From contig CM075103.1 of assembly GCA_037576195.1 (NCBI GenBank), positions 28,232,723 to 28,296,722 of the forward strand: 64,000 bases of DNA. The letters run 5' to 3'. This document shows positions 22,543 through 54,654 of this stretch, one piece after another; position 1 is the first letter of the stretch; each line of letters begins with the position of its first letter. Under the pieces are notes generated by a model. It was not told where the DNA came from, made no database searches, and saw only the letters and a program-made list of their open reading frames with translations. Origin of the DNA: Phytoseiulus persimilis (lineage: Eukaryota; Arthropoda; Arachnida; Mesostigmata; Phytoseiidae). A program made the translations under genes and the position numbers.

Positions 22543-22599
22543 GGCTGTTTCGACCGTCGCTCCCTTCATCGTCACCTACCCCTCACGAAAGACTCATCG

Positions 22600-22995
22600 A
22601 TGACTCCTTCAAGGTCTGCTCTTCCGGTAGTTGCGTTGCTCGATCATTTCCGACGGCTGCGAGAACTTGCACTGGGTCGATCAGATCATTCAACTCAGAT
22701 TCTCTTGATATCATCCGAGGATCGCGGTCCTAGTCAACCGTCATGCCGATCTGCCGATGACAGTTCACGATCGGATCCGTTTTGCGTCTTCTGCAAGAAC
22801 AACAAAGCACCGAAACCTGTCTACCGGAGTCATGTCGCCAAGGACAATCGCGGTCTCGTTGTTTGCCCAGTCTTGCGACAGTTTAACTGTCCACATTGTA
22901 ACAATGGAGGAGGTGACCTGGCTCATACGGCCAACTTTTGCCCCAAAAAGCGAGCAGAATATTTGAACTCGTTTGTGAGGAAGACTCGAGAATAA
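22600..22995 (+). CDS. nanos-like: Nanos-like zinc-finger protein, copy 1
   Basis: A 131-aa protein. Residues 1-60 are Ser/Arg-rich and low in complexity. Residues 62-114 form the Nanos double zinc finger C-x2-C-x12-H-x10-C-x7-C-x2-C-x8-H-x4-C, starting CVFCKNNKAPKPVY and including GLVVCPVLRQFNCP. Nanos proteins bind mRNA, usually with Pumilio, and recruit the CCR4-NOT deadenylase to silence germline and patterning transcripts in the cytoplasm. That role is inferred here from the finger alone. The canonical second finger has seven residues between its second Cys and the His; here there are eight. This copy is the most divergent (RRLRELALGRSDHS, PHCNN, SFVRKTRE), has a unique 5' flank, and its stop is followed by TCGG rather than forming AATAAA. 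It may be the founder. Confidence 0.85.
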   Translation: MTPSRSALPVVALLDHFRRLRELALGRSDHSTQILLISSEDRGPSQPSCRSADDSSRSDPFCVFCKNNKAPKPVYRSHVAKDNRGLVVCPVLRQFNCPHCNNGGGDLAHTANFCPKKRAEYLNSFVRKTRE

Positions 22996-23810
22996 TCGGT
23001 CCCTAACTGCTCATTCGAAGCGAGGTGTAACTATACTCAACAGACATCTTCGAGCATACGACGATTTTGGTTTCTGAATATCTTCAGCAGACCGGTTACC
23101 GACTCAGATTTGCCGCGAAGGTCGTTGGGACTTCCGACGCCAGTTCTCGGAGACAATCTCCGGTTTTTTTCGCCGTCTGGTTGGAACAACGAGAGGGTCC
23201 GAATTCAGCGGTCAACATAAAACCAGCACAGCGGTAACAAGTATCCCCAAAAACTGCTAAGGGTTAATCTGTAGCTACTCACGAGGAATGAGCCGATTCT
23301 CAAATGGGGATATCCTATGCTATCTTTTAAAAGTATAAGACACCAATTCCAGCCTCATTAAAAGTTTGATGAGGCTGAGAAACGCTGGAACTGTTCCCCA
23401 GAGATCGCAGCTCACTTCTGAAATAAATGTACCCCGAGGGGAAACGCCTGCGCTCAACTCAGTTCTGCTGGACGGGATCGAGGGATTTTGAGAACTCGTT
23501 GTTGAGCAAGAAAGTACCGGCAAGAACGTCCCTTACTGTTCGGTGCCCGGCTCCGAGGAATGCTCACGTGATCTTTTGCTTGAGCCCTCTACAACCCTCT
23601 CCAAGCGATGATCTCCTTGGAGCTTGACGAGGTTTTTCGAAGTCAGAAGGTTTGTGGCTGATCTCGGCTTCGGATCGTTAATTGTTGACCATCATCCACT
23701 CTTAGCAACTAGAATGCAGAGACGAGACTCAGAGACTGGTTTGGGACGGTACGTAATGTCTCGACCGTCGCTCTCCTCATCGTAAGGCACCTCACACAAA
23801 AGGCTCATCG

Positions 23811-24206
23811 ATGACTCTTTCCAGGTCCGCTCTTCCAGTGGATGCGTTGCTCGATCAGTTCCGACGGCTGCAAGAACTTGTACAAGGTCGATCGGAGTAT
23901 TCTACTCAGGTCCATGCAAGATCATCCGAGGATTGCGGTCCCAGTCAACCGTCAAGCCGATCTGTCGATGACAGTTCACGATCCAATTCGTTTTGCGTCT
24001 TCTGCAAGAACAACAAAGCACCGAAACCCGTGTACCGGAGTCATGTCGCCAAGGACAATCGCGGTCTCGTTGTTTGCCCAGTCTTGCGACAGTTCAACTG
24101 CCCCTATTGTAACAATGGAGGAGGTGATCTAGCCCACACTACTAACTTTTGCCCCAAAAAGCGAGCAGATTATCTGAACTCGTTTCTGAGGAAGACCCGA
24201 GAATAA
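23811..24206 (+). CDS. nanos-like: Nanos-like zinc-finger protein, copy 2
   Basis: Intact 131-aa copy with all eight zinc ligands. It differs from copy 3 at one residue: HTTNF instead of HTANF, just before the last Cys. N-terminal type 'LVQGRSEYSTQVHARSS ... SSRSVDDSSRSNSF'. Its stop codon TAA lies inside AATAAA. Confidence 0.85.
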   Translation: MTLSRSALPVDALLDQFRRLQELVQGRSEYSTQVHARSSEDCGPSQPSSRSVDDSSRSNSFCVFCKNNKAPKPVYRSHVAKDNRGLVVCPVLRQFNCPYCNNGGGDLAHTTNFCPKKRADYLNSFLRKTRE

Positions 24207-25617
24207 AGTACCGAAGTATCGACTACATCAGGTGTCTTTTTTGGCGTCTTTTTCCGTTGATGCTGGAACGAGGAAGCAGCCCCAATGCTGATAAACGTTT
24301 ATGCTGTTTGAGCAGCATCGTCGGAGACATGAGAGTTGTTCGCGGGGATAAAACTTATTCTTTATTCAATGAAACGATGAGAACGAGCGCGTTGACGGAG
24401 GCCACCGTCTCAGCCTGTTCCGGCAAGGAGCTCCCCGGCAGGTAGCGATCCCCTGACTGCCGCTCTGTCGCAGAGATTGTTCTCCACAACCTATCAAGTG
24501 TCGACTCGCTCTGAATAGCGAATCGAGCCGAAGATTCGGTGAGCAAGAACCTACAGGTCTCGTGCGCAGTCCTATCTAAATATCGACTTTAAGAAGATAT
24601 CCCTACCGTTCAGGGCGAGCGGTGAGAACTGCGATTTTTTCCTGAATGAGCAAACTCCTTGTTCTGCTCGCAGTCCTCGTAATATATCTCCCTCTCGAAT
24701 GGCTCCACAATCCTTTAAGGTCCACTGCAGTTGGTTTGTATACTTAGTTCTCCTTCGTTAAGCCTCTCCACAGAGAATTCGTCCGAGCGGCGAATTTCAT
24801 AGCCCCGACTGCTCATTCGAAATGAGGTTTAACTATACTCAACAGATGTCTTCGAGCATACGTCTATTTCGGTCTCTGAATATCTCCAGAAAACCGGTTA
24901 TCGACTCAGATTTGCGGCGAAGGTCGTTGGGACTTCCGCCGCCAGTTCTTGGAGACAATCTCCGGATCTTTTCGCCGTCTTGTTGGAACAACGAGAGGGT
25001 CCGGATCCAGCGTTTAACACAAAACCAGCACAGCGGTAACAAGTATCCCCAAAAACTGCTCAGGGTTAATCTGTAGCTACTCACGAGGAATGAGCCGATT
25101 CTCAAATGGGGATATCCTATGCTATATTTTAAAAGTATGAGACACCGATTCCAGCCTCATAAAAAGTTTGGTGAGGCTGAGAAACGCTGGAACTGTTCCC
25201 CAGAGATCGGAGCTCTCTTCCAGAAGAAATGCTCCCCGAGGGGAACGCCTGCGCTCAACTCAGTTCTGCTGGACGGCTTCGCGATCGACGGATTTTGAGA
25301 ACTCGTTGTTGAGCAAGAAAGTACCGGCAAGAACGTCCCTTACTGTTCGGTGCCCGGCTCCGAGAAATGCTCACGTGATCTTTTGCTTGAGCCCTCTACA
25401 ACCCTCTCCAAGCGATGATCTCCTTGGAGCTTGATGAGTTTTTTCGAAGTCAGAAGGTTTGTGGCTGATCTCGGCTTCGGATCGTTAATTGTTGACCATC
25501 ATCCACTCTTAGCAACTAGAATGCAGAGACGAGACTCAGAGACTGGTTTGGGACGGTACGTAATGTCTCGACCGTCGCTCTCCTCATCGTAAGGCACCTC
25601 ACACAAAAGGCTCATCG

Positions 25618-26013
25618 ATGACTCTTTCCAGGTCCGCTCTTCCAGTGGATGCGTTGCTCGATCAGTTCCGACGGCTGCAAGAACTTGTACAAGGTCGATC
25701 GGAGTATTCTACTCAGGTCCATGCAAGATCATCCGAGGATTGCGGTCCCAGTCAACCGTCAAGCCGATCTGTCGATGACAGTTCACGATCCAATTCGTTT
25801 TGCGTCTTCTGCAAGAACAACAAAGCACCGAAACCCGTGTACCGGAGTCATGTCGCCAAGGACAATCGCGGTCTCGTTGTTTGCCCAGTCTTGCGACAGT
25901 TCAACTGCCCTTATTGTAACAATGGAGGAGGTGATCTAGCCCACACTGCTAACTTTTGCCCCAAAAAGCGAGCAGATTATCTGAACTCGTTTCTGAGGAA
26001 GACCCGAGAATAA
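25618..26013 (+). CDS. nanos-like: Nanos-like zinc-finger protein, copy 3
   Basis: Intact 131-aa copy. Its whole unit is almost identical to unit 2 at a distance of 1807 bp, a sign of a recent single-unit duplication. The stop overlaps AATAAA. Confidence 0.85.
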   Translation: MTLSRSALPVDALLDQFRRLQELVQGRSEYSTQVHARSSEDCGPSQPSSRSVDDSSRSNSFCVFCKNNKAPKPVYRSHVAKDNRGLVVCPVLRQFNCPYCNNGGGDLAHTANFCPKKRADYLNSFLRKTRE

Positions 26014-27424
26014 AGTACCGAAGTATCGACTACATCAGGTGTCTTTTTTGGCGTCTTTTTCCGTTGATGCTGGAACGAGGAAGCAGCCCCAATGCTGATA
26101 AACGTTTATCCTGTTTGAGCAGCATCGTCGGAGACATGAGAGTTGTTCGCGGGGATAAAACTTATTCTTTATTCAATGAAACGATGAGAACGAGCGCGTT
26201 GACGGAGACCACCGTCTCAGCCTGTTCCGGCAAGGAGCTCCCCGGCAGGTAGCGATCCCCTGACTGCCGCTCTGTCGCAGAGATTGTTCTCCACAACCTA
26301 TCAAGTGTCGACTCGCTCTGAATAGCGAATCGAGCCGAAGATTCGGTGAGCAAGAACCTACAGGTTTCGTGCGTAGTCCTATCTAAATATCGACTTTAAG
26401 AAGATATCCCTACCGTTCAGGGCGAGCGGTGAGAACTGCGATTTTTTCCTGAATGAGCAAACTCCTTGTTCTGCTCGCAGTCCACGTAATATATCTCCCT
26501 CTCGAATGGCTCCACAATCCTTTAAGGTCCACTGCAGTTGGTTTGTATACTTAGTTCTCCTTCGTTAAGCCTCTCGACAGAGAATTCGTCCGAGCGGCGA
26601 ATTTCATAGCCCCGACTGCTCATTCGAAATGAGGTTTAACTATACTCAACAGATGTCTTCGAGCATACGTCGATTTCGGTCTCTGAATATCTCCAGAAAA
26701 CCGGTTATCGACTCAGATTTGCGGCGAAGGTCGTTGGGACTTCCGCCGCCAGTTCTTGGAGACAATCTCCGGATCTTTTCGCCGTCTTGTTGGAACAACG
26801 AGAGGGTCCGGATCCAGCGTTTAACACAAAACCAGCACAGCGGTAACAAGTATCCCCAAAAACTGCTCAGGGTTAATCTGTAGCTACTCACGAGGAATGA
26901 GCCGATTCTCAAATGGGGATATCCTATGCTATTTTTTAAAAGTATGAGACACCGATTCCAGCCTCATAAAAAGTTTGGTGAGGCTGAGAAACGCTGGAAC
27001 TGTTCCCCAGAGATCGGAGCTCTCTTCCAGAAGAAATGCTCCCCGAGGGGAACGCCTGCGCTCAACTCAGTTCTGCTGGACGGCTTCACGATCGACGAAT
27101 TCTGAGAGCTCGTTGTTGAACAGGAAAGTACCGGCGAGAACGTCCCTCACTGTTCGGTGCCCGGCTCCGAGAAATGCTCACGTGATCTTCTGCGTGAGCT
27201 CTCCACAACCCTCTCCCAGCGATGATCTCGTTGGAGCTTGACGAGGTTTTTCGAAGTCAGAAGGTTTGTGGCTGATCTCGGCTTCAGATCGTTTATTGTT
27301 GACCATCATCCACTCCAAGCAACGAGAATGCAGAGACGAGACTCAGTGACTGGTTTGGGACGGTACGTATTGTCTCGACCGTCGCTCTCCTCATCGTAAG
27401 GCACCTCTCACAAAAGGCTCATCG

Positions 27425-27820
27425 ATGGCTCCTTCCAGGTCTGCTCTTCCAGTGGATGCGTTGCTCGATCAGTTCCGACGGCTGCAAGAACTTGTACAAG
27501 GTCGATCGGAGTGTTCTACTCAGGTCCATGCAAGATCATCCGAGGATTGCGGTCCCAGTCAACCGTCATGCCGATCTGTCGATGACAGTTCACGATCGAA
27601 TTCGTTTTGCGTCTTCTGCAAGAACAACAAAGCACCGAAACCCGTGTACCGGAGTCATGTCGCCAAGGACAATCGCGGTCTCGTTGTTTGCCCAGTCTTG
27701 CGACAGTTCAACTGCCCTTATTGTAACAATGGAGGAGGTGATCTAGCCCACACTGCTAACTTTTGCCCCAAAAAGCGAGCAGATTATCTGAACTCGTTTC
27801 TGAGGAAGACCCGAGAATAA
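27425..27820 (+). CDS. nanos-like: Nanos-like zinc-finger protein, copy 4
   Basis: Intact copy beginning MAPSRSALP rather than MTLSRSALP, with ECSTQV and SCRSV in the linker. The protein is identical to copy 14, 17.9 kb away. The 3' flank carries a ~126-bp deletion around 27955, which makes this unit 1681 bp. Confidence 0.85.
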   Translation: MAPSRSALPVDALLDQFRRLQELVQGRSECSTQVHARSSEDCGPSQPSCRSVDDSSRSNSFCVFCKNNKAPKPVYRSHVAKDNRGLVVCPVLRQFNCPYCNNGGGDLAHTANFCPKKRADYLNSFLRKTRE

Positions 27821-29105
27821 AGTACCGAAGTATCGACTACATGAGGTGTCTTTTTTGGCTTCTTTTTCCGTTGATGCTGGAACGAGGAAGCAGCCCCAAT
27901 GCTGATAAACGTTTATCCTGTTTGAGCAGCAGCGTCGGAGACATGGGAGTTGTTCACAGAGATTGTTCTCCATAACCTATCAAGTGTCGACTCGCTCCGA
28001 ATAGCGAAACGGGCCGAAGATTCGGTGGGCGAGAACCTACAGGTTTCGTACACAGTCCTATATGAAGATAGACTTCTAGAAGGTATCTCTACCGTTCAGG
28101 GCGAGCAGTGCGAACTGCGACTTTTCCTAAATAAGCAAACTCCCTGATTTGCTCGCAGTCTTCGTGATATATCTTTCTCTTGAACGGCTCAACAGTCCTT
28201 GAAGGTCCACTGGAGTTGATTTGTATACGCCGTTCTCCTTCGTTCAGCCTCTCCACAAGAGAATTCGTCCGAGCGGCACAATTCACAGTCCCTGACTGCT
28301 CATTCGAAGCGAGGTTTAACTATACTCAACAGATATCTTCGAGCCCACGTCGATTTCGGTCTCTGAATATCTCCAGAAAACCGGTTATCGACTCAGATTT
28401 GCCGCGAAGGTCGTTGGGACTTCCGCCGCCAGTTCTTGGAGACAATCTCCGGATCTTTTCGCCGTCTTGTTGGAACAACGAGAGGGTCTGAATTCAGCGT
28501 TTAACATAAAACCAGCACAGCGGTAACAAGTATCCCCAAAAACTGCTCAGGGTTAATCTGTAGCTGCTCACGAAGAATGAGCCGATTCTCAAATGGGGAT
28601 ATCCTATGCTATTTTTTAAAAGTATGAGACACCGATTCCAGCCTCATTAAAAGTTTGGTGAGGCTGAGAAACGCTGGAACTGTTCCCCAGAGATCGGAGC
28701 TCTCTTCCAGAAGAAATGCTCCCCGAGGGGGAACGCCTGCGCTCAACTCGGTTCTGCTGGACGGCTTCGCGATCGACGGATTTTGAGAACTCGTTGTTGA
28801 GCAGGAAAGTACCAGCGAGAACGTCCCTCACTGTTCGGTACCCGGCTCCGAGAAATGCTCACATGATCTTCTGCGTGAGCTCTCTACAACCCTCTCCCAG
28901 CGATGATCCCGTTGGAGCTTGACGAGGTCTCTCGAAGTCAGAAGGTTTGTGGCTGATCTCGGCTTCAGATCGTTAATTGTTGACCATCATCCACTCTCAG
29001 CACTGAGAATGCAGAGACGAGACTCAGAGACTGGTTTGGGACGGTACGTAATGTCTCGACCGTCGCTCTCCTCATCGTTAGGCACCTCACACAAAAGGTT
29101 CATCG

Positions 29106-29501
29106 ATGACTCTTTCCAGGTCTGCTCTTCCAGTGGATGCGTTGCTCGATCAGTTCCGACGGCTGCAAGAACTTGCACAAGGTCGATCGGAGTATTCTAC
29201 TCAGGTCCATCCAAGATCATCCGAGGATTGCGGTCCCAGTCAACCGTCAAGCCGATCTGTCGATGACACTTCACGATCGGATCCGTTTTGCGTCTTCTGC
29301 AAGAACAACAGAGCACCGAAACCTGTCTACCGGGGTCATGTCGCCAAGGACAATCGTGGTCTTGTTGTTTGCCCGGTCTTGCGACAGTTCAACTGCCCAT
29401 ATTGTAACAATGGAGGAGGTGATCTGGCCCATACTGCCAACTTTTGCCCCAGAAAGCGAGCAGAATATTTTAACTCGTTTCTGAGGAAGACTCGAAAATA
29501 A
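29106..29501 (+). CDS. nanos-like: Nanos-like zinc-finger protein, copy 5
   Basis: Intact copy of the 'LAQGRSEYSTQVHPRSS ... DDTSRSDPF' type. Private changes include NNRAP in place of NNKAP within the first finger and EYFNSF near the C-terminus. It shares YRGHV, CPRKRAEY and the RKTRK end with copies 13 and 15. The donor-like GTAAGG upstream of the ATG is GTTAGG here. Confidence 0.85.
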   Translation: MTLSRSALPVDALLDQFRRLQELAQGRSEYSTQVHPRSSEDCGPSQPSSRSVDDTSRSDPFCVFCKNNRAPKPVYRGHVAKDNRGLVVCPVLRQFNCPYCNNGGGDLAHTANFCPRKRAEYFNSFLRKTRK

Positions 29502-30909: not shown

Positions 30910-31305
30910 ATGACTCTTTCCAGGTCTGCTCTTCCAGTGGATGCGTTGCTCGATCAGTTCCGACGGCTGCAAGATCTTGCACAAGGTCGATCGGAGTATT
31001 CTACTCAGGTCCATCCAAGATCATCCGCGGATTGCGGTCCCAGTCAACCGTCATGCCGATCTTTCGATGACAGTTCACGATCGAATTCGTTTTGCGTCTT
31101 CTGCAAGAACAACAAAGCACCGAAACCCGTGTATCGGAGTCATGTCGCTAAGGACAATCGCGGTCTCGTTGTTTGCCCAGTCTTGCGACAGTTCAACTGC
31201 CCTTATTGTAACAATGGAGGAGGTGATCTAGCCCACACTGCTAACTTTTGCCCAAAAAAGCGAGCAGATTATCTGAACTCGTTTCTGAGGAAGACCCGAG
31301 AATAA
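30910..31305 (+). CDS. nanos-like: Nanos-like zinc-finger protein, copy 6
   Basis: Intact copy with private linker residues LQDLAQG, SSADCG and SFDDSS. From 31126 onward (first finger) it is the start of the 5.4-kb block repeated at 36528, so the two halves of this gene have different closest relatives. Confidence 0.85.
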   Translation: MTLSRSALPVDALLDQFRRLQDLAQGRSEYSTQVHPRSSADCGPSQPSCRSFDDSSRSNSFCVFCKNNKAPKPVYRSHVAKDNRGLVVCPVLRQFNCPYCNNGGGDLAHTANFCPKKRADYLNSFLRKTRE

Positions 31306-32716
31306 AGTACCGAAGTATCGACTACATCAGGTGTCTTTTTTGGCGTCTTTCTCCGTTGATGCCGGAATTAGGAAGCAGCCCGAATGCTGATAAACGTTCA
31401 ACCTGTTTGAGCAGCATCGTCGGAGACATGAGAGTTGTTCGCGGGGATAAAACTTATTCTTTATTCAATGAAACGATGAGAACGAGCGCGTTGACGGAGG
31501 CCACCGTCTCAGCCTGTTCCGGCAAGGAGCTCCCCGGCAGGTAGCGATCCCCTGACTGCCGCTCTGTCGCAGAGATTGTTCTCCACAACCTATCAAGTGT
31601 CGACTCGCTCTGAATAGCGAATCGAGCCGAAGATTCGGTGAGCAAGAACCTACAGGTTTCGTGCGTAGTCCTATCTAAATATCGACTTTAAGAAGATATC
31701 CCTACCGTTCAGGGCGAGCGGTGAGAACTGCGATTTTTTCCTGAATGAGCAAACTCCTTGTTCTGCTCGCAGTCCACGTAATATATCTCCCTCTCGAATG
31801 GCTCCACAATCCTTTAAGGTCCACTGCAGTTGGTTTGTATACTTAGTTCTCCTTCGTTAAGCCTCTCGACAGAGAATTCGTCCGAGCGGCGAATTTCATA
31901 GCCCCGACTGCTCATTCGAAATGAGGTTTAACTATACTCAACAGATGTCTTCGAGCATACGTCGATTTCGGTCTCTGAATATCTCCAGAAAACCGGTTAT
32001 CGACTCAGATTTGCGGCGAAGGTCGTTGGGACTTCCGCCGCCAGTTCTTGGAGACAATCTCCGGATCTTTTCGCCGTCTTGTTGGAACAACGAGAGGGTC
32101 CGGATCCAGCGTTTAACACAAAACCAGCACAGCGGTAACAAGTATCCCCAAAAACTGCTCAGGGTTAATCTGTAGCTACTCACGAGGAATGAGCCGATTC
32201 TCAAATGGGGATATCCTATGCTATTTTTTAAAAGTATGAGACACCGATTCCAGCCTCATAAAAAGTTTGGTGAGGCTGAGAAACGCTGGAACTGTTCCCC
32301 AGAGATCGGAGCTCTCTTCCACAAGAAATGCTCCCCGAGGGGAACGCCTGCGCTCAACTCAGTTCTGCTGGACGGCTTCACGATCGACGAATTCTGAGAG
32401 CTCGTTGTTGAACAGGAAAGTACCGGCGAGAACGTCCCTCACTGTTCGGTGCCCGGCTCCGAGAAATGCTCACGTGATCTTCTGCGTGAGCTCTCCACAA
32501 CCCTCTCCCAGCGATGATCTCGTTGGAGCTTGACGAGGTTTTTCGAAGTCAGAAGGTTTGTGGCTGATCTCGGCTTCAGATCGTTTATTGTTGACCATCA
32601 TCCACTACAAGCAACGAGAATGCAGAGACGAGACTCAGTGACTGGTTTGGGACGGTACGTATTGTCTCGACCGTCGCTCTCCTCATCGTAAGGCACCTCT
32701 CACAAAAGGCTCATCG

Positions 32717-33112
32717 ATGGCTCCTTCCAGGTCTGCTCTTCCAGTGGATGCGTTGCTCGATCACTTCCGACGGCTGCAAGAACTTGTACAAGGTCGATCG
32801 GAGTGTTCTACTCAGGTCCATGCAAGATCATCCGAGGATTGCGGTCCCAGTCAACCGTCATGCCGATCTGTCGATGACAGTTCACGATCGAATTCGTTTT
32901 GCGTCTTCTGCAAGAACAACAAAGCACCGAAACCCGTGTACCGGAGTCATGTCGCCAAGGACAATCGCGGTCTCGTTGTTTGCCCAGTCTTGCGACAGTT
33001 CAACTGCCCTTATTGTAACAATGGAGGAGGTGATCTAGCCCACACTGCTAACTTTTGCCCCAAAAAGCGAGCAGATTATCTGAACTCGTTTCTGAGGAAG
33101 ACTCGAAAATAA
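32717..33112 (+). CDS. nanos-like: Nanos-like zinc-finger protein, copy 7
   Basis: Intact MAPSRS-type copy with LLDHFRRL and C-terminus RKTRK. The protein is identical to copy 10, exactly 5402 bp downstream. The unit is 20 bp short because 'AAGGAGCTCCCCGGC' and neighbouring bases are missing near 33331. Confidence 0.85.
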   Translation: MAPSRSALPVDALLDHFRRLQELVQGRSECSTQVHARSSEDCGPSQPSCRSVDDSSRSNSFCVFCKNNKAPKPVYRSHVAKDNRGLVVCPVLRQFNCPYCNNGGGDLAHTANFCPKKRADYLNSFLRKTRK

Positions 33113-34503
33113 AGTACAGAAGTATCGACTACAAAAGGTGTCTTCTTTGGCGACGTTTTCTGTTGATGCTGGAGCGAGGAAGCAGCCCGAATGCTGATAA
33201 AGTTTTATCCTGTTTGAGCAGCATCGTCGGAGACATGAGAGTTGTTCGCAGGAATAAAACTTATTCTTTATTCAATGAAACGATGAGAACGAGCGCGTTG
33301 ACGGAGGCCACTGTCTCAGCCTGTTCCGGCAGGTAGCGATCCCCTGACTGCCGCTCTGTCGCAGAGATTGTTCTCCACAACCTATCAAGTGTCGACTCGC
33401 TCTCAATAGCGAATCGAGCCGAAGATTCGGTGAGCAAGAACCTACAGGTTTCGTGCGCAGTCCTATCTAAAGATCGATTTTGAGAAGATATCCCCACCGT
33501 TCAGGGCGAGCGGTGAGAACTGCGATTTTTTCCTGAATGAGCAAACTCCTTGTTCTGCTCGCAGTCCTCGTAATATATCTCCCTCTCGAATGGCTCCACA
33601 ATCCTTTAAGGTCCACTGCAGTTGGTTTGTATACTTAGTTCTCCTTCGTTAAGCCTCTCCACAGAGAATCCGTCCGAGCGGCGAATTTCACAGCCCCGAC
33701 TGCTCATTCGAAGCGAGGTTTAACTATACTCAACAGATGTCTTCGAGCATACGTCCATTTCGGTCTCTGAATATCTCCAGAAAACCGGTTATCGACTCAG
33801 ATTTGCCGCGAAGGTTGTTGAGACTTCCGCCGCCAGTTCTTGGAGACAATCTCCGGATTTTTTCGCCGTCTGGTGGGAACAACGAGAGGGTCCGAATCCA
33901 GCGTTTAACACAAAACCAGCACAGCGGTAACAAGTATCCCCAAAAACTGCTCAGGGTTAATCTGTAGCTACTCACGAAGAATAAGCCGATTCTCAAATGG
34001 GGATATCCTATGCTATTTTTTAAAAGTATGAGACACCGATTCCAGCCTCATAAAAAGTTTGGTGAGGCTGAGAAACGCTGGAACTGTTCCCCAGAGATCG
34101 CAGCTCACTTCTAAAATAAATGTACCCCGAGGGGAAACGCCTGCGCTCAACTCAGTTCTGGTGGACGGGATCGAGGGATTTTGAGAACTCGTTGTTGAGC
34201 AAGAAAGTACCGGCAAGAACGTCCCTTACTGTTCGGTGCCCGGCTCCGAGAAATGCTCACATGATCTTTTGCTTGAGCTCTCTACAACCCTCTCCAAGCG
34301 ATGATCTCCTTGGAGCTTGACGAGGTTTTTCGAAGTCAGAAGGTTTGTGGCTGATCTCGGCTTCGGATCGTTAATTGTTGACCATCATCCACTCTTAGCA
34401 ACGAGAATGCAGAGACGAGACTCAGAGACTGATTTGGGACGGTACGTAATGTCTCGACCGTCGCTCTCCTCATCGTAAGGCACCTCACACAAAAGGCTCA
34501 TCG

Positions 34504-34899
34504 ATGACTCTTTCCAGGTCTGCTCTTCCAGTGGATGCGTTGCTCGATCAGTTCCGACGGCTGCAAGAACTTGTACAAGGTCGATCGGAGTGTTCTACTC
34601 AGGTCCATGCAAGATCATCCGAGGATTGCGGTCCCAGTCAACCGTCATGCCGATCTGTCGATGACAGTTCACGATCGAATTCGTTTTGCGTCTTCTGCAA
34701 GAACAACAAAGCACCGAAACCCGTGTACCGGAGTCATGTCACCAAGGACAATCGCGGTCTCGTTGTTTGCCCAGTCTTGCGACAGTTCAACTGCCCTTAT
34801 TGTGACAATGGAGGAGGTGATCTAGCCCACACTGCTAACTTTTGCCCCAAAAAGCGAGCAGATTATCTGAACTCGTTTCTGAGGAAGACCCGAGAATAA
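34504..34899 (+). CDS. nanos-like: Nanos-like zinc-finger protein, copy 8
   Basis: Intact copy with two finger changes shared only with copy 11: SHVTKDN (Ala to Thr) and PYCDNGGGD (Asn to Asp right after the second-finger Cys pair). The protein is identical to copy 11, 5402 bp away. Confidence 0.85.
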   Translation: MTLSRSALPVDALLDQFRRLQELVQGRSECSTQVHARSSEDCGPSQPSCRSVDDSSRSNSFCVFCKNNKAPKPVYRSHVTKDNRGLVVCPVLRQFNCPYCDNGGGDLAHTANFCPKKRADYLNSFLRKTRE

Positions 34900-36311
34900 A
34901 GTACCGAAGTTTCGACTACATGAGGTGTCTTTTTTGGCGTCTTTTTCCGTTGATGCTGGAACGAGGAAGCAGCCCGAATGCTGATAAACGTTTATCCTGT
35001 TCGAGCAGCATCGTCGGAGACATGAGAGCTGTTCGCAGGCATAATACTTATTCTTTATTCAATGAAACGATGAGAACGAGCGCGTTGACGGAGGCCACTG
35101 TCTCAGCCTGTTCCGGCAAGGAGCTCCCCGGCAGGTAGCGATCCCCTGACTGCCGCTCTGTCGCAGAGATTGTTCTCCACAACCTATCAAGTGTCGACTC
35201 GCTCTCAATAGCGAATCGAGCCGAAGATTCGGTGAGCAAGAACCTACAGGTTTCGTGCGCAGTCCTATCTAAAGATCGATTTTGAGAAGATATCCCTACC
35301 GTTCAGGGCGAGCGGTGAGAACTGCGATTTTTTCCTGAATGAGCAAACTCCTTGTTCTGCTCGCAGTCCTCGTAATATATCTCCCTCTCGAATGGCTCCA
35401 CAATCCTTTAAGGTCCACTGCAGTTGGTTTGTATACTTAGTTCTCCTTCGTTAAGCCTCTCCACAGAGAATCCGTCCGAGCGGCGAATTTCACAGCCCCG
35501 ACTGCTTATTCGAAGCGAGGTTTAACTATACTCAACAGATGTCTTCGAGCATACGTCCATTTCGGTCTCTGAATATCTCCAGAAAACCGGTTATCGACTC
35601 AGATTTGCCGCGAAGGTTGTTGAGACTTCCGCCGCCAGTTCTTGGAGACAATCTCCGGATTTTTTCGCCGTCTGGTGGGAACAACGAGAGGGTCCGAATC
35701 CAGCGTTTAACACAAAACCAGCACAGCGGTAACAAGTATCCCCAAAAACTGCTCAGGGTTAATCTGTAGCTACTCACGAAGAATAAGCCGATTCTCAAAT
35801 GGGGATATCCTATGCTATTTTTTAAAAGTATGAGACACCGATTCCAGCCTCATTAAAAGTTTGGTGAGGCTGAGAAACGCTGGGACTGTTCCCCAGAGAT
35901 CGGAGCTCTCTTCCAGAAGAAATGCTCCCCGAGGGGGAACACCTGCGCTCAACTCAGTTCTGCTGGACGGCTTCGCGATCGACGGATCTTGAGAACTCGT
36001 TGTTGAGCAAGAAAGTACCGGCAACAACGTCCCTTACTGTTCGGTGCCCGGCTCCGAGAAATGCTCACGTGATCTTTTGCTTGAGCTCTCTACAACCCTC
36101 TCCCAGCGATGATCTCCTTCGAGCTTGACGAGGTTTTTCGAAGTCAGAAGGTTTGTGGCTGATCTCGGCTTCAGATCGTTAATTGTTGACCATCATCCAC
36201 TCTTAGCAACGAGAATGCAGAGACGAGACTCAGAGACTGGTTTGGGACGGTACGTAATGTCTCGACCGTCGCTCTCCTCATCGTAAGGCACCTCACACAA
36301 AAGGCTCATCG

Positions 36312-36707
36312 ATGACTCTTTCCAGGTCTGCTCTTCCAGTGGATGCGTTGCTCGATCAGTTCCGACCGCTGCAAGAACTCGCACAAGGTCGATCGGAGTA
36401 TTCTACTCAGGTCCATCCTAGATCATCCGAGGATTGCGGTCCCAGTCAACCGTCAAGCCGATCTGTTGATGACACTTCACGATCGGATCTGTTTTGCGTC
36501 TTCTGCAAGAACAACAAAGCACCGAAACCCGTGTATCGGAGTCATGTCGCTAAGGACAATCGCGGTCTCGTTGTTTGCCCAGTCTTGCGACAGTTCAACT
36601 GCCCTTATTGTAACAATGGAGGAGGTGATCTAGCCCACACTGCTAACTTTTGCCCAAAAAAGCGAGCAGATTATCTGAACTCGTTTCTGAGGAAGACCCG
36701 AGAATAA
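36312..36707 (+). CDS. nanos-like: Nanos-like zinc-finger protein, copy 9
   Basis: Intact chimeric copy. Up to 36527 it matches copy 12 (FRPLQELAQG, SRSDLF); from 36528 on it matches copy 6 (GTGTATCGG, GCTAAGG). It therefore contains the junction between the two 5.4-kb blocks. Confidence 0.85.
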   Translation: MTLSRSALPVDALLDQFRPLQELAQGRSEYSTQVHPRSSEDCGPSQPSSRSVDDTSRSDLFCVFCKNNKAPKPVYRSHVAKDNRGLVVCPVLRQFNCPYCNNGGGDLAHTANFCPKKRADYLNSFLRKTRE

Positions 36708-38118: not shown

Positions 38119-38514
38119 ATGGCTCCTTCCAGGTCTGCTCTTCCAGTGGATGCGTTGCTCGATCACTTCCGACGGCTGCAAGAACTTGTACAAGGTCGAT
38201 CGGAGTGTTCTACTCAGGTCCATGCAAGATCATCCGAGGATTGCGGTCCCAGTCAACCGTCATGCCGATCTGTCGATGACAGTTCACGATCGAATTCGTT
38301 TTGCGTCTTCTGCAAGAACAACAAAGCACCGAAACCCGTGTACCGGAGTCATGTCGCCAAGGACAATCGCGGTCTCGTTGTTTGCCCAGTCTTGCGACAG
38401 TTCAACTGCCCTTATTGTAACAATGGAGGAGGTGATCTAGCCCACACTGCTAACTTTTGCCCCAAAAAGCGAGCAGATTATCTGAACTCGTTTCTGAGGA
38501 AGACTCGAAAATAA
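38119..38514 (+). CDS. nanos-like: Nanos-like zinc-finger protein, copy 10
   Basis: Intact; same protein as copy 7. The unit shares the same 20-bp shortening. One visible difference from unit 7 lies downstream at 38655 (G for A at 33253). Confidence 0.85.
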   Translation: MAPSRSALPVDALLDHFRRLQELVQGRSECSTQVHARSSEDCGPSQPSCRSVDDSSRSNSFCVFCKNNKAPKPVYRSHVAKDNRGLVVCPVLRQFNCPYCNNGGGDLAHTANFCPKKRADYLNSFLRKTRK

Positions 38515-39905: not shown

Positions 39906-40301
39906 ATGACTCTTTCCAGGTCTGCTCTTCCAGTGGATGCGTTGCTCGATCAGTTCCGACGGCTGCAAGAACTTGTACAAGGTCGATCGGAGTGTTCTAC
40001 TCAGGTCCATGCAAGATCATCCGAGGATTGCGGTCCCAGTCAACCGTCATGCCGATCTGTCGATGACAGTTCACGATCGAATTCGTTTTGCGTCTTCTGC
40101 AAGAACAACAAAGCACCGAAACCCGTGTACCGGAGTCATGTCACCAAGGACAATCGCGGTCTCGTTGTTTGCCCAGTCTTGCGACAGTTCAACTGCCCTT
40201 ATTGTGACAATGGAGGAGGTGATCTAGCCCACACTGCTAACTTTTGCCCCAAAAAGCGAGCAGATTATCTGAACTCGTTTCTGAGGAAGACCCGAGAATA
40301 A
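39906..40301 (+). CDS. nanos-like: Nanos-like zinc-finger protein, copy 11
   Basis: Intact; same protein as copy 8, including SHVTKDN and PYCDN. Confidence 0.85.
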   Translation: MTLSRSALPVDALLDQFRRLQELVQGRSECSTQVHARSSEDCGPSQPSCRSVDDSSRSNSFCVFCKNNKAPKPVYRSHVTKDNRGLVVCPVLRQFNCPYCDNGGGDLAHTANFCPKKRADYLNSFLRKTRE

Positions 40302-41712: not shown

Positions 41713-42079
41713 ATGACTCTTTCCAGGTCTGCTCTTCCAGTGGATGCGTTGCTCGATCAGTTCCGACCGCTGCAAGAACTCGCACAAGGTCGATCGGAGT
41801 ATTCTACTCAGGTCCATCCTAGATCATCCGAGGATTGCGGTCCCAGTCAACCGTCAAGCCGATCTGTTGATGACACTTCACGATCGGATCTGTTTTGCGT
41901 CTTCTGCAAGAACAACAAAGCACCGAAACCTGTCTACCGGAGTCATGTCGCCAAGGACAATCGCGGTCTTGTTGTTTGCCCGGTCTTGCGACAGTTCAAC
42001 TGCCCATATTGTAACAATGGAGGAGGTGATCTGGCCCATACTGCCAACTTTTGACCAAAAAAGCGAGCAGAATATTTGA
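41713..42079 (+). pseudogene. nanos-like: Nanos-like zinc-finger protein, copy 12, truncated
   Basis: The frame opens normally, but a TGA at 42052-42054 replaces the TGC for the last zinc-binding Cys, so the predicted product is 113 aa and the second finger cannot close. The bases after it still encode the usual KKRAEYLNSF tail, then TAA in AATAAA. The 5' half is the copy-9 type, with the switch to copy-13-like sequence at about 41929. This is the only disabled copy of the fifteen. Nearby, a single T is missing at ~41443 relative to unit 9. Confidence 0.85.
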
Positions 42080-43520
42080 ACTCGTTTCTGAGGAAGACTC
42101 GAAAATAAAGTACAGAAGTATCGACTACAAAAGGTGTCTTCTTTGGCGACGTTTTCTGTTGATGCTGGAGCGAGGAAGCAGCCCGAATGCTGATAAAGTT
42201 TTATCCTGTTTGAGCAGCATCGTCGGAGACATGAGAGTTGTTCGCAGGGATAAAACTTATTCTTTATTCAATGAAACGATGAGAACGAGCGCGTTGACGG
42301 AGGCCACCGTCTCAGCCTGTTCCGGCAAGGAGCTCCCCGGCAGGTAGCGATCCCCTGACTGCCGCTCTGTCGCAGAGATTGTTCTCCACAACCTATCAAG
42401 TGTCGACTCGCTCTGAATAGCGAATCGAGCCGAAGATTCGGTGAGCAAGAGCCTACAGGTTTCGTGCGCAGTCCTATCTAAAGATCGACTTTAAGAAGAT
42501 ATCCCTACCGTTTAGGGCGAGCGGTGAGAACTGCGATTTTTTCCCGAATGAGCAAACTCCTTGTTCTGCTCGCAGTCCTCGTAATATATCTCCCTCTCGA
42601 ATGGCTCCACAATCCTTTAAGGTCCACTGCAGTTGGTTTGTTTACTTAGTTCTCCTTCGTTAAGCCTCTCCACAGAGAATTCGTCCGAGCGGCGAATTTC
42701 ACAGCCCCGACTGCTCATTCGAAACGAGGTTTAACTATACTCAACAGACATCTTCGAGCATACGACGATTTCGGTCTCTGAATATCTTCAGCAGACCGGT
42801 TACCGACTCAGATTGGCCGCGAAGGTCGTTGGGACTTCCGCCGCCAGTTCTCGGAGAGAATCTCCGGTTCTTTTCGCCGTCTGGTTGGAACAACGAGAGG
42901 GTCTGAATTCAGCGTTTAACATAAAACCAGCACAGCGGTAACAAGTATCCCCAAAAACTGCTCAGGGTTAATCTGTAGCTGTTCACGAAGAATGAGCCGA
43001 TTCTCAAATGGGGATATCCTATGCTATTTTTTAAAAGTATGAGACACCGATTCCAGCCTCATTAAAAGTTTAGTGAGGCTGAGAAACGCTGGAACTGTTC
43101 CCCAGAGATCGGAGCTCTCTTCCAGAAGAAATGCTCCCCGAGGGGGAACGCCTGCGCTCAACTCGGTTCTGCTGGACGGCTTCGCGATCGACGGATTTTG
43201 AGAACTCGTTGTTGAGCAGGAAAGTACCGGCGAGAACGTCCCTCAATGTTCGGTACCCGGCTCCGAGAAATGCTCACATGATCTTCTGCGTGAGCTCTCT
43301 ACAACCCTCTCCCAGCGATGATCCCGTTGGAGCTTGACGAGGTCTCTCGAAGTCAGAAGGTTTGTGGCTTATCTCGGCTTCAGATCGTTAATTGTTGACC
43401 ATCATCCACTCTTAGCACTGAGAATGCAGAGACGAGACTCAGAGACTGTTTTGGGACGGTACGTAATGTCTCGACCGTCGCTCTCCTCATCGTTAGGCAC
43501 CTCACACAAAAGGCTCATCG

Positions 43521-43916
43521 ATGACTCTTTCCAGGTCTGCTCTTCCAGTGGATGCGTTGCTCGATCAGTTCCGACGGCTGCAAGAACTTGCACAAGGTCG
43601 ATCGGAGTATTCTACTCAGGTCCATCCAAGATCATCCGAGGATTGCGGTCCCAGTCAACCGTCAAGCCGATCTGTCGATGACACTTCACGATCGGATCCG
43701 TTTTGCGTCTTCTGCAAGAACAACAAAGCACCGAAACCTGTCTACCGGGGTCATGTCGCCAAGGACAATCGTGGTCTTGTTGTTTGCCCGGTCTTGCGAC
43801 AGTTCAACTGCCCATATTGTAACAATGGAGGAGGTGATCTGGCCCATACTGCCAACTTTTGCCCCAGAAAGCGAGCAGAATATTTGAACTCGTTTCTGAG
43901 GAAGACTCGAAAATAA
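43521..43916 (+). CDS. nanos-like: Nanos-like zinc-finger protein, copy 13
   Basis: Intact; protein identical to copy 15 (3617 bp downstream) and close to copy 5. Finger variants are YRGHV and CPRKRAEY. Confidence 0.85.
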   Translation: MTLSRSALPVDALLDQFRRLQELAQGRSEYSTQVHPRSSEDCGPSQPSSRSVDDTSRSDPFCVFCKNNKAPKPVYRGHVAKDNRGLVVCPVLRQFNCPYCNNGGGDLAHTANFCPRKRAEYLNSFLRKTRK

Positions 43917-45329
43917 AGTACAAAAGTATCGACTACATAAGGTGTCTTCTTTGGCGACGTTTTCTGTTGATGCTGGAACGAGGAAGCAGCCCGAATGCTG
44001 ATAAACTTTTATCCTGTTTGAGCAGCATCGTCGGAGACATGAGAGTTGTTCGCAGGGATGAAACTTATTCTTTAATCAATGAAACGATGAGAACGAGCGC
44101 GTTGACGGAGGCCACCGTCTCAGCCTGTTCCGGCAAGGAGCTCCCCGGCAGGTAGCGATCCCCTGACTGCCGCTCTGTCGCAGAGATTGTTCTCCATAAC
44201 CTATCAAGTGTCGACTCGCTCCGAATAGCGAAACGGGCCGAAGATTCGGTGGGCGAGAACCTACAGGTTTCGTACACAGTCCTATATGAAGATAGACTTC
44301 GAGAAGGTATCTCTACCGTTCAGGGCGAGCAGTGCGAACTGCGACTTTTCCTAAGTAAGCAAACTCCCTGTTTTGCTCGCAGTCTTCGTGATATATCTTT
44401 CTCTTGAACGGCTCAACAGTCCTTGAAGGTCCACTGGAGTTGATTTGTATACGCCGTTCTCCTTCGTTCAGCCTCTCCACAGGAGAATTCGTCCGAGCGG
44501 CAAAATTCACAGTCCCTAACTGCTCATTCGAAGCGAGGTTCAACTATACTCAACAGATATCTTCGAGCATACGTCGATTTCGGTCTCTGAATATCTCCAG
44601 AAAACCGGTTATCGACTCAGATTTGCCGCGAAGGCCGTTGAGACCTCCGCCGCCAGTTCTCGGAGTCAAGCTCCGGATCGTTTCGCCGTCGGGGTGGAAC
44701 AACGAGAGGTTCCGAATTCAGCGTTTAACATAGAACCAGCACAGCGGTAACAAGTATCCCCAGAAACTGCTCAGGGTTAATCTGTAGCTACTCACGAGGA
44801 ATGAGCCGATTCTCAAATGGGGATATCCTATGCTATCTTTCAAAAGTATAAGACACCAATTCCAGCCTCATTAAAAGTTTGATGAGGCTGAGAAACGCTG
44901 GAACTGTTCCCCAGAGATCGCAGCTCACTTCTAAAATAAATGTTCCCCAAGGGGAAACGCCTGCGCTCAACTCAGTTCTGCTGGACGGCTTCACGATCGA
45001 CGAATTCTGAGAGCTCGTTGTTGAACAGGAAAGTACCGGCGAGAACGTCCCTCACTGTTCGGTGCCCGGCTCCGAGAAATGCTCACGTGATCTTCTGCGT
45101 TAGCTCTCCACAACCCTCTCCCAGCGATGATCTCGTTGGAGCTTGACGAGGTTTTTCGAAGTCAGAAGGTTTGTGGCTGATCTCGGCTTCAGATCGTTTA
45201 TTGTTGACCATCATCCACTCCAAGCAACGAGAATGCAGAGACGAGACTCAGTGACTGGTTTGGGACGGTACGTATTGTCTCGACCGTCGCTCTCCTCATC
45301 GTAAGGCACCTCTCACAAAAGGCTCATCG

Positions 45330-45725
45330 ATGGCTCCTTCCAGGTCTGCTCTTCCAGTGGATGCGTTGCTCGATCAGTTCCGACGGCTGCAAGAACTTGT
45401 ACAAGGTCGATCGGAGTGTTCTACTCAGGTCCATGCAAGATCATCCGAGGATTGCGGTCCCAGTCAACCGTCATGCCGATCTGTCGATGACAGTTCACGA
45501 TCGAATTCGTTTTGCGTCTTCTGCAAGAACAACAAAGCACCGAAACCCGTGTACCGGAGTCATGTTGCCAAGGACAATCGCGGTCTCGTTGTTTGCCCAG
45601 TCTTGCGACAGTTCAACTGCCCTTATTGTAACAATGGAGGAGGTGATCTAGCCCACACTGCTAACTTTTGCCCCAAAAAGCGAGCAGATTATCTGAACTC
45701 GTTTCTGAGGAAGACCCGAGAATAA
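45330..45725 (+). CDS. nanos-like: Nanos-like zinc-finger protein, copy 14
   Basis: Intact MAPSRS-type copy, protein identical to copy 4. Silent change GTTGCC for GTCGCC in the finger region. Confidence 0.85.
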   Translation: MAPSRSALPVDALLDQFRRLQELVQGRSECSTQVHARSSEDCGPSQPSCRSVDDSSRSNSFCVFCKNNKAPKPVYRSHVAKDNRGLVVCPVLRQFNCPYCNNGGGDLAHTANFCPKKRADYLNSFLRKTRE

Positions 45726-47137
45726 AGTACCGAAGTATCGACTACATGAGGTGTCTTTTTTGGCGTCTTTTTCCGTTGATGCTGGAACGAGAAAGCAGCC
45801 CGAATGCTGATAATCGTTTATCCTGTTTGAGCAGCATCGTCGGAGACATGAGAGCTGTTCGCAGGGATAAAACTTATTCTTTATTCAATGAAACGATGAG
45901 AACGAGCGCGTTGACGGAGGCCACTGTCTCAGCCTGTTCCGGCAAGGAGCTCCCCGGCAGGTAGCGATCCCCTGACTGCCGCTCTGTCGCAGAGATTGTT
46001 CTCCACAACCTATCAAGTGTCGACTCGCTCTCAATAGCGAATCGAGCCGAAGATTCGGTGAGCAAGAACCTACAGGTTTCGTGCGCAGTCCTATCTAAAG
46101 ATCGATTTTGAGAAGATATCCCTACCGTTCAGGGCGAGCGGTGAGAACTGCGATTTTTTCCTGAATGAGCAAACTCCTTGTTCTGCTCGCAGTCCTCGTA
46201 ATATATCTCCCTCTCGAATGGCTCCACAATCCTTTAAGGTCCACTGCAGTTGGTTTGTATACTTAGTTCTCCTTCGTTGAGCCTCTCCACAGAGAATCCG
46301 TCCGAGCGGCGAATTTCACAGCCCCGACTGCTCATTCGAAGCGAGGTTTAACTATACTCAACAGATGTCTTCGAGCATACGTCCATTTCGGTCTCTGAAT
46401 ATCTCCAGAAAACCGGTTATCGACTCAGATTTGCCGCGAAGGTTGTTGAGACTTCCGCCGCCAGTTCTTGGAGACAATCTCCGGATTTTTTCGCCGTCTG
46501 GTGGGAACAACGAGAGGGTCCGAATCCAGCGTTTAACACAAAACCAGCACAGCGGTAACAAGTATCCCCAAAAACTGCTCAGGGTTAATCTGTAGCTACT
46601 CACGAAGAATAAGCCGATTCTCGAATGGGGATATCCTATGCTATTTTTTAAAAGTATGAGACACCGATTCCAGCCTCATTAAAAGTTTGGTGAGGCTGAG
46701 AAACGCTGGGACTGTTCCCCAGAGATCGGAGCTCTCTTCCAGAAGAAATGCTCCCCGAGGGGGAACGCCTGCGCTCAACTCAGTTCTGCTGGACGGCTTC
46801 GCGATCGACGGATTTTGAGAACTCGTTGTTGAGCAAGAAAGTACCGGCAACAACGTCCCTTACTGTTCGGTGCCCGGCTCCGAGAAATGCTCACGTGATC
46901 TTTTGCTTGAGCTCTCTACAACCCTCTCCCAGCGATGATCCCGTTGGAGCTTGACGAGGTCTCTCGAAGTCAGAAGGTTTGTGGCTGATCTCGGCTTCAG
47001 ATCGTTAATTGTTGACCATCATCCACTCTTAGCACTGAGAATGCAGAGACGAGACTCAGAGACTGGTTTGGGACGGTACGTAATGTCTCGACCGTCGCTC
47101 TCCTCATCGTTAGGCACCTCACACAAAAGGCTCATCG

Positions 47138-47533
47138 ATGACTCTTTCCAGGTCTGCTCTTCCAGTGGATGCGTTGCTCGATCAGTTCCGACGGCTGCAA
47201 GAACTTGCACAAGGTCGATCGGAGTATTCTACTCAGGTCCATCCAAGATCATCCGAGGATTGCGGTCCCAGTCAACCGTCAAGCCGATCTGTCGATGACA
47301 CTTCACGATCGGATCCGTTTTGCGTCTTCTGCAAGAACAACAAAGCACCGAAACCTGTCTACCGGGGTCATGTCGCCAAGGACAATCGTGGTCTTGTTGT
47401 TTGCCCGGTCTTGCGACAGTTCAACTGCCCATATTGTAACAATGGAGGAGGTGATCTGGCCCATACTGCCAACTTTTGCCCCAGAAAGCGAGCAGAATAT
47501 TTGAACTCGTTTCTGAGGAAGACTCGAAAATAA
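47138..47533 (+). CDS. nanos-like: Nanos-like zinc-finger protein, copy 15
   Basis: Last intact copy, protein identical to copy 13. Its unit runs on to 48466 and is cut off there, so there is no sixteenth gene. Confidence 0.85.
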   Translation: MTLSRSALPVDALLDQFRRLQELAQGRSEYSTQVHPRSSEDCGPSQPSSRSVDDTSRSDPFCVFCKNNKAPKPVYRGHVAKDNRGLVVCPVLRQFNCPYCNNGGGDLAHTANFCPRKRAEYLNSFLRKTRK

Positions 47534-48542
47534 AGTACAAAAGTATCGACTACATAAGGTGTCTTCTCTGGCGACGTTTTCTGTTGATGCTGGAACGAGG
47601 AAGCAGCCCGAATGCTGATAAACTTTTATCCTGTTTGAGCAGCATCGTCGGAGACATGAGAGTTGTTCGCAGGGATAAAACTTATTCTTTATTCAATGAA
47701 ACGATGAGAACGAGCGCGTTGACGGAGGCCACCGTCTCAGCCTGTTCCGGCAAGGAGCTCCCCGGCAGGTAGCGATCCCCTGACTGCCGCTCTGTCGCAG
47801 AGATTGTTCTCCACAACCTATCAAGTGTCGACTCGCTCTGAAAAGCGAATCGAGCCGAAGATTCGGTGAGCAAGAACCTACAGGTTTCGTGCGCAGTCCT
47901 ATCTAGAGATCGACTTTAAGAAGATATCCCTACCGTTCAGGGCGAGCGGTAAGAATTGGGATTTTTTCCTGAATGAGAAAACTCCTTGTTCTGCTCGCAG
48001 TCCTCGTAATATATCTCCCTCTCGAATGGCTCCACAATCCTTCAAGGTCCACTGCAGTTGGTTTGTATACTTAGTTCTCCTTCGTTAAGCCTCTCCACAG
48101 AGAATTCGTCCGAGCGGCGAATTTCACAGCCCCGACTGCTCATTCGAAGCGAGGTTTAACTATACTCAACAGATGTCTCCGAGCATACGTCGATTTCGGT
48201 CTCTGAATATCTTCTGCAGACCGGTTACCGACTCAGATTGGCCGCGAAGGTCGTTGGGACTTCCGCCGCCAGTTCTCGGAGACAATCTCCGGTTCTTTTC
48301 GCCGTCTGGTTGGAACAACGAGAGGGTCTGAATTCAGCGTTTAACATAAAACCAGCACAGCGGTGACAAGTATCCCCAAAAACTGCTCAGGGTTAATCTG
48401 TAGCTACTCACGAAGAATGAGCCGATTCTCAAATGGGGATATCCTATGCTATTTTTTAAAAGTATGAAACTTTGAAACTTGGGTTTTTTTCTTAGGGCTC
48501 GGGAAAAACACGTCTCATCAAAGCTGTAGCAAACGAAAGAGG

Positions 48543-49252: not shown

Positions 49253-49274
49253 TTTACTACTTACTAATAAATAA

Positions 49275-49446
49275 CTTTTCAACTCTGGAGGGGTGATTCC
49301 GAGAGCAATCTGGCCATTACTTTCCAACTCTGGAGGGGTGATTCCGAGACCAATCTGGCCATTACTTTCCAACTCTGGAGGGGTGATTCCGAGATCAATC
49401 TGGCCATTACTTTCCAACTCTGGAGGGGTGATCCCGAGACCAATCT
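49275..49446 (-). repeat. 45-bp minisatellite, inverted array
   Basis: About four copies of the same 45-bp unit in the opposite orientation, only ~25 bp after the direct array, so the transcribed or single-stranded region could fold into a long hairpin. Confidence 0.9.
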
Positions 49447-54401: not shown

Positions 54402-54654
54402 ATGAAACATCAAATGTGTTGATTCGGCCAAGGGTATTCATTATCCAAGCTTCGAAACTGAACCCTCCGAGCTTTCATGATCGCGAATTCGTTGATCGCA
54501 TCGTTCACTTCGATGTTATTCGAGCTTCCATGCTCGATCGACAGGATCGCGAGGTTTGAGAGCCGTAATTGGCTCATGCTGGCGCGGAGATAAGATTTGA
54601 TCGATTCCCGGTGCACGTCAATACCATGTCGGTATCGAGCATTGTGTTTCCCCA

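What the first reader, a model, noticed from the sequence alone, without database searches (positions are those of the whole stretch)
22543..48466. Fifteen-gene tandem array of Nanos-type zinc-finger genes
Nanos is usually one or a few genes per genome and controls germline fate. Here fifteen near-identical 131-codon genes with a full eight-ligand Nanos finger sit head to tail over 26 kb, fourteen of them intact. The fingers are almost invariant while the linkers vary. Such dosage of an RNA-binding regulator is, to my knowledge, unusual. Possible explanations are selection for high expression, an arms race, or a selfish germline locus; none is shown by the sequence.
Basis: partly seen in the sequence, partly recalled or inferred. 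Interest (0 to 1): 0.92.

Follow-up and report, generated by a model that had tools for sequence, protein, structure and literature searches.

The report
Tandem array of Nanos germline-regulator genes
An arthropod genome carries a run of fifteen copies of a Nanos-type gene, a germline regulator that usually exists in one to a few copies, inside a wider multiplication of the same gene family, and the RNA-binding part of the copies is still protected by natural selection.

Summary
Fifteen head-to-tail Nanos-type ORFs lie within 22546-48470; fourteen are open, and the copy at 41713 has TGA in place of its eighth zinc ligand. Pfam zf-nanos matches at E about 1e-20. The array is part of a larger expansion: 57 zf-nanos places in this 181-Mb genome, in several clusters, against two PUF (Pumilio-type) loci. 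The array groups with a gene on C1 and degenerate copies on C53; the C2/C3 clusters form another group. Within the array the finger is under strong purifying selection (dN/dS 0.075) while the linker is near neutral (1.12), so these look like working protein genes, not merely homogenised repeats. The array turns over by unequal exchange and conversion. The gene model needs correcting: a conserved 35-nt upstream exon and 76-nt intron would give 138 rather than 131 codons in 14 of 15 copies. I read it as a lineage-specific, probably dosage-driven amplification of a Nanos RNA-binding repressor. Expression, tissue and species are unproven; the host is an arthropod, perhaps a predatory mite.

The parts
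22546..48470 (+). whole nanos array: divergent copy 1, fourteen ~1.8-kb units, and a truncated start of a further unit
   Evidence: blastn of unit 8
22600..22995 (+). copy 1, divergent; lacks the shared splice donor and the upstream exon ATG
23811..24206 (+). copy 2 ORF
25618..26013 (+). copy 3 ORF
27425..27820 (+). copy 4 ORF; its unit is the one without the ~126-bp insert
29106..29501 (+). copy 5 ORF
30910..31305 (+). copy 6 ORF
32717..33112 (+). copy 7 ORF, CDS identical to copy 10
34504..34899 (+). copy 8 ORF, CDS identical to copy 11; zf-nanos E 2.6e-20
36312..36707 (+). copy 9 ORF
38119..38514 (+). copy 10 ORF
39906..40301 (+). copy 11 ORF
41713..42108 (+). copy 12, TGA at the eighth zinc ligand
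43521..43916 (+). copy 13 ORF, CDS identical to copy 15
45330..45725 (+). copy 14 ORF
47138..47533 (+). copy 15 ORF
34407..34441 (+). putative 35-nt first exon of copy 8; same place (97 bases before the ORF start) in 14 of 15 copies
   Evidence: conserved ATG and donor, open joined frame, same exon in L003
34206..34333 (+). upstream block of unit 8 that is 71% identical over 132 columns to the stretch upstream of one C53 copy (L006); perhaps promoter or 5' UTR
35033..35166 (.). ~126-bp dispersed repeat of unit 8 with TCGCAG at both ends; present in 13 of 14 full units
31089..36040 (+). tract that recurs 5402 bp downstream with one mismatch: recent multi-unit duplication

Best explanation
A true tandem array of protein-coding Nanos paralogs, one branch of a lineage-specific expansion of the Nanos family in an arthropod. 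Shown: finger identity, copy number in this assembly, purifying selection on the finger, and turnover of units by unequal exchange and conversion. Inferred: each gene makes a Nanos of about 138 residues (short N-terminal segment, free linker, two-knuckle finger) that binds RNA beside a Pumilio site and brings in a repressor through the N-terminal segment; the copies together supply a high dose of it, most likely in germ line or early embryo, while unequal crossing-over keeps changing their number. I put 'working Nanos-family genes' at about 0.9 and 'dosage is the main reason for the copy number' at about 0.45; the confidence given is for the statement as a whole.
For: zf-nanos E about 1e-20 and only Nanos structures as PDB matches. 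14 of 15 ORFs open. Finger dN/dS 0.075 within the array and 0.039 between copy 1 and the rest; finger diversity by codon position 0.019, 0.009, 0.094. Pocket residues F321, T366, Y369 of fly Nanos are F, T, F in 14 of 14 array fingers compared. A 35-nt exon and an intron at the same place and phase are shared with L003. The second group of copies also shows a constrained finger (0.135) and N-terminal segment (0.211). 5-kb tract repeated with one mismatch, mosaic unit 12, and an insert that spread to 13 of 14 units.
Against: No expression data. One copy is broken and the C53 copies look degenerate, so part of the family is decaying. K368, which touches RNA phosphate in fly, is N in the array, so binding may differ. 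The vertebrate NIM is absent: no Trp in any array protein; the repressor link is not shown. PUF proteins are not multiplied, which limits how far Nanos dosage alone could raise complex formation. Selection tests treat recombining copies as independent. The N-terminal segment is weakly constrained within the array (0.745).
Confidence: 0.6

Rival explanations
1. Copy-number drift: unequal crossing-over multiplied a gene that needs few copies; selection keeps the finger of whichever copies are expressed and the number itself has no function.
For: Recent multi-unit duplication, mosaic units, a broken copy and a near-neutral linker are what unequal exchange under weak constraint gives.
Against: Finger constraint runs through the distinct copies (13 synonymous to 6 replacement changes), and the family has multiplied in several separate places while PUF repeats (two loci) and arginine-kinase-type genes (three loci) have not.
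Confidence: 0.25
2. Genetic conflict: amplified Nanos copies are a response to, or a means of, competition in the germ line (over chromosome elimination, sex ratio or transposons), with linkers changing under antagonism.
For: Several separate amplifications of one germline family; linker dN/dS 1.12 in the array. If the host is a phytoseiid mite (not shown), paternal genome elimination occurs in that family (passage of PMC6902594).
Against: Linker dN/dS is not clearly above 1 in the array and is 0.64 in the C3 clusters, which fits plain relaxation. The fingers do not diversify. Host and sex bias are unknown.
Confidence: 0.15
3. Assembly artefact: haplotypes or reads were stacked into extra units.
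For: Two long tracts are identical but for one base; copy number rests on one assembly.
Against: Most units differ from each other by 2-9% over their length, and the single repeat insert and empty site are ordered within one gap-free stretch.
Confidence: 0.04
4. The nanos copies are carried by a transposable element.
For: Other clusters lie among transposon-like ORFs and on both strands; all but one full unit carry a dispersed repeat.
Against: The window copies are strictly head to tail with a nearly constant period, and the repeat entered after the array existed, since unit 4 shows the empty site. The genome search with a whole unit cannot settle it: its 39 rows were the ~111-bp repeat only and did not even list the array's own units.
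Confidence: 0.03

Closest known systems
Drosophila Nanos (PDB 5kl1, 5kl8; PMC4995099, passages)
   Same: eight zinc ligands; pocket residues F321 and T366 kept, Y369 as F; N325 kept
   Different: K368 is N and Y352 is F in the array; one extra residue in the second knuckle loop (53 against 52 residues); much shorter protein; dozens of copies in the genome
Zebrafish Nanos finger (PDB 3alr; organism recalled)
   Same: best PDB match, E 2.5e-15
   Different: no vertebrate NIM in the array proteins
Bombyx mori nanos homologs (PMC13120685, passage)
   Same: several nanos genes in one arthropod genome, with one of them required for germ cells
   Different: four homologs against 57 zf-nanos places here; no tandem array is mentioned in the passage seen
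Known large tandem arrays of dosage-type genes such as histones and rDNA (recalled)
   Same: head-to-tail units homogenised by exchange, coding part conserved by selection
   Different: a germline RNA-binding regulator rather than a bulk structural product; dosage role not shown

Membership tests
Nanos family (PF05741) | match to the zf-nanos profile above the curated cut-off | tested here: met
   E 3.6e-20 and 2.6e-20 for two array proteins; 15 of 15 array places over the cut-off
Nanos family (PF05741) | two CCHC knuckles, eight zinc ligands | tested here: met
   14 of 15 copies; copy 12 has TGA at the eighth
Nanos family (PF05741) | RNA-contact residues known from fly Nanos | tested here: inconclusive
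   F321, N325, T366 kept; Y369 and Y352 are F; K368 is N in 14 of 14 compared
Nanos family (PF05741) | CNOT1-interacting motif (NIM: F, W, D, Y, L at 1, 4, 6, 7, 10) | tested here: not met
   no Trp in any of 15 array proteins; by PMC4003280 (passage) the NIM could not be detected in insects, flatworms, annelids or rotifers either, so it defines a subset and not the family
Nanos family (PF05741) | predicted fold like solved Nanos fingers | not tested
Nanos family (PF05741) | binds RNA together with a PUF protein | not testable with these tools
   two PUF loci exist in the genome; binding needs an assay
Nanos family (PF05741) | expression and role in germ line or early embryo | not testable with these tools
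   no expression data held

The most novel reading that the evidence does not exclude
In this lineage Nanos has become a fast-turnover multigene family (57 or more places, several separate amplifications) whose copy number is itself under selection in a germline conflict, such as one over elimination of one parent's chromosomes, with linkers free to diversify and the RNA-binding finger frozen.
Probability: 0.15. Interest if true: 0.95.

Novelty: new variant of a known kind. Interest (0 to 1): 0.76.

Why it matters
Nanos is a key germline and embryo regulator, usually studied as one or a few genes. A genome with dozens of copies in separate clusters, with fingers under strong constraint, is a natural test of what sets Nanos dosage and of whether germline RNA regulators can be drawn into high-output or conflict roles. 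It also means that a 'nanos' probe in this lineage may follow many genes at once.

Tried and rejected
Homogenisation alone as the cause of the invariant finger: rejected, because third codon positions in the finger are far more diverse (0.094) than first and second (0.019, 0.009) and than non-coding sequence (0.055). A simple retrocopy as the origin of the array: considered because L003 has a second intron that the array lacks, but the array shares L003's first intron. An RNA gene inside the unit: no Rfam family at the gathering threshold and no tRNA in the window. Naming the host: no 30-base TTAGG run (that search skips simple repeats in DNA mode, so weak) and no cox1; 112 cuticle-domain matches show an arthropod; PDB matches of a mu-class GST and an arginine kinase do not settle the order. 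Whole-unit DNA search was uninformative because it listed only the dispersed repeat. Paper searches on nanos with mites, phytoseiids, duplication, expansion and paternal genome elimination showed no report of such an expansion among the rows listed, which for several searches are the top part of a longer list (10 of 38, 25 of 186, 15 of 588). Six papers were seen as passages only, none whole.
Full report
WHAT IS THERE. The window is C3:28232723-28296722 of a 181.0-Mb genome in 127 contigs. Fifteen ORFs of 131 codons lie head to tail on the + strand, with starts from 22600 to 47138. The first start-to-start distance is 1211 bp, the others 1681-1809 bp. Fourteen ORFs are open; the copy at 41713 has TGA at the eighth zinc ligand. 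Copy 1 differs from the others at 39-49 of 396 positions, the other fourteen from each other at 0-29. There are no Ns in the window.

IDENTITY. Pfam zf-nanos matches at E 3.6e-20 and 2.6e-20 for the two array proteins scanned. At E up to 0.01 three PDB sequences match, 3alr, 5kl1 and 5kl8, all named Nanos (zebrafish and fly from recall). With the fly residue numbers given in passages of PMC4995099, the pocket for the base just upstream of the Pumilio site (F321, T366, Y369) is F, T, F in 14 of 14 array fingers compared; N325 is kept, Y352 is F, and K368, which contacts a phosphate, is N. The genome's L001 keeps K368 and L002 has R. RNA binding beside Pumilio is therefore plausible, with a possible change in strength.

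GENE MODEL. The paralog L003 (C1:17.887 Mb) has a 35-nt exon and a 74-nt intron at the same place and phase, and the first residues align (MERMNSDT, MQRRDSET). L003 also has a second intron that the array lacks; four acceptors leave its frame open, so its full protein is not settled. Copy 1 has neither the ATG nor the donor at that place. No RNA confirms the model. AATAAA overlaps the stop codon in 14 of 15 copies; if it is used, the messages would have almost no 3' UTR, which is inference.

SELECTION. Among 11 distinct array sequences without copy 1 (the broken copy kept, its stop codon skipped), dN/dS is 0.075 in the finger (dS 0.147, dN 0.011), 1.12 in the linker, 0.745 in the N-terminal segment and 0.426 in the C-terminus; copy 1 against the rest gives 0.039 for the finger. 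Changes number 13 synonymous and 6 replacement in the finger, 7 and 18 elsewhere (Fisher p 0.014; binomial against expected sites p 4e-5); both tests treat changes as independent, which recombining copies are not. Finger diversity by codon position is 0.019, 0.009 and 0.094, and outside the CDS 0.055. The finger is thus held by selection on the protein and not by recent copying. In 13 ORFs of the C3:31.6 and 36.0 Mb clusters dN/dS is 0.135 in the finger, 0.211 in the first 40 codons and 0.638 in the linker.

TURNOVER. 31089-36040 recurs 5402 bp downstream with one mismatch; unit 12 follows copy 9 up to alignment column 1097, then mostly copy 15 up to column 1452, then a mixture. A ~126-bp dispersed repeat, whose ~111-bp core is listed at 39 places elsewhere in the genome, sits in 13 of 14 full units between copies of TCGCRG; unit 4 shows the empty site. 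Diversity in the insert is 0.021 against 0.068 and 0.038 in the 150 columns on either side. So the array existed before the insertion and the inserted form then spread: concerted evolution. A stretch upstream of the first exon in unit 8 (34206-34333) is 71% identical over 132 columns to the stretch upstream of one C53 copy, perhaps a shared promoter.

GENOME CONTEXT. One search lists 57 zf-nanos places, all over the cut-off (a lower bound). My tally of its rows: 15 in the window, 14 at C3:31.61-31.74 Mb, 5 at C3:36.02-36.08 Mb, 13 at C2:5.15-5.52 Mb, 3 on C53 and 7 singles. A search with an array protein adds a frame-split copy at C1:17891688-17891923, about 4 kb from L003, and a few weak rows. 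Other families in the same genome: PUF repeats at two loci, arginine-kinase-type at three, Piwi 19 rows, several per gene, GST_N 9 rows; I take this as no sign of general inflation, though these are few families. A finger tree used 40 sequences from the 57 places (10 places not fetched; 7 did not fit the full pattern, copy 12 among them), 30 distinct rows with two outgroups. It groups the array (100/100) with L003 and C53 (93/84), and the C2 and C3 clusters with L033 (90/92); the three L019/L020 copies stand apart. Fly Nanos falls beside the array group (95/92) and zebrafish in the other half, both on long branches; 14 of 27 inner branches are open, so deep order is not settled. Of the two C53 copies aligned in full, one keeps the upstream ATG and donor and both have stops or frame breaks before the finger, so they look degenerate. 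The C3 clusters are larger duplicated blocks on both strands among transposon-like ORFs.

HOST. 112 Chitin_bind_4 matches show an arthropod. Genome size, about 50% GC in the window and four contigs of tens of megabases make me think of a phytoseiid mite, from recall; the three chromosomes given for two phytoseiids in PMC6902594 (passage) do not match. This remains a guess.

HOW IT LIKELY WORKS. Shown: a Nanos finger, many copies in this assembly, constraint on the finger, turnover by exchange. Inferred: a short RNA-binding adaptor that works with one of two Pumilio-type proteins and recruits a repressor through its N-terminal segment, seen as LLDQFRRLQELVQGR in the array, FIEQFRLLRELALGR in L003 and FEQLIMEIDVLRDRDLG in the clusters (their likeness is my reading). 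The vertebrate NIM is absent. Dosage is my leading reason for the copy number; drift and conflict remain open.

NOVELTY. Nanos is known. Dozens of copies in separate clusters were not described in the listings and passages seen (four in B. mori; two in Mnemiopsis; searches). The library holds only open-licence papers, so absence there is weak evidence.

Noticed in passing
48542-49249, 49274-49446 and 57428-57805: Arrays of a 45-bp repeat just beyond the nanos array; the second lies in inverted orientation to the first, and a more diverged 45-bp array occurs 8 kb further on.
   Followed up: no
51207-53956 and 54626-56536: LINE-like endonuclease and reverse-transcriptase ORFs in pieces, then a Copia-type fragment, right of the array.
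   Followed up: partly
614-1210 and 20067-20522: Weak MULE-transposase and SWIM zinc-finger matches, below the curated cut-offs.
   Followed up: partly
14 of 15 copies, for example 34895-34900: A polyadenylation-type AATAAA overlaps the stop codon, suggesting messages with almost no 3' UTR.
   Followed up: partly
L019 and L020 (C3:31.709-31.719 Mb): Three nanos copies of a further type within the C3:31.6 Mb cluster, with M in place of pocket residue F321 but K368 kept.
   Followed up: partly
L005, L006, L038 (contig C53, 130-3828): Three degenerate L003-like nanos copies at the very end of an unplaced 75.6-kb contig, which may be the edge of another, unassembled array.
   Followed up: partly
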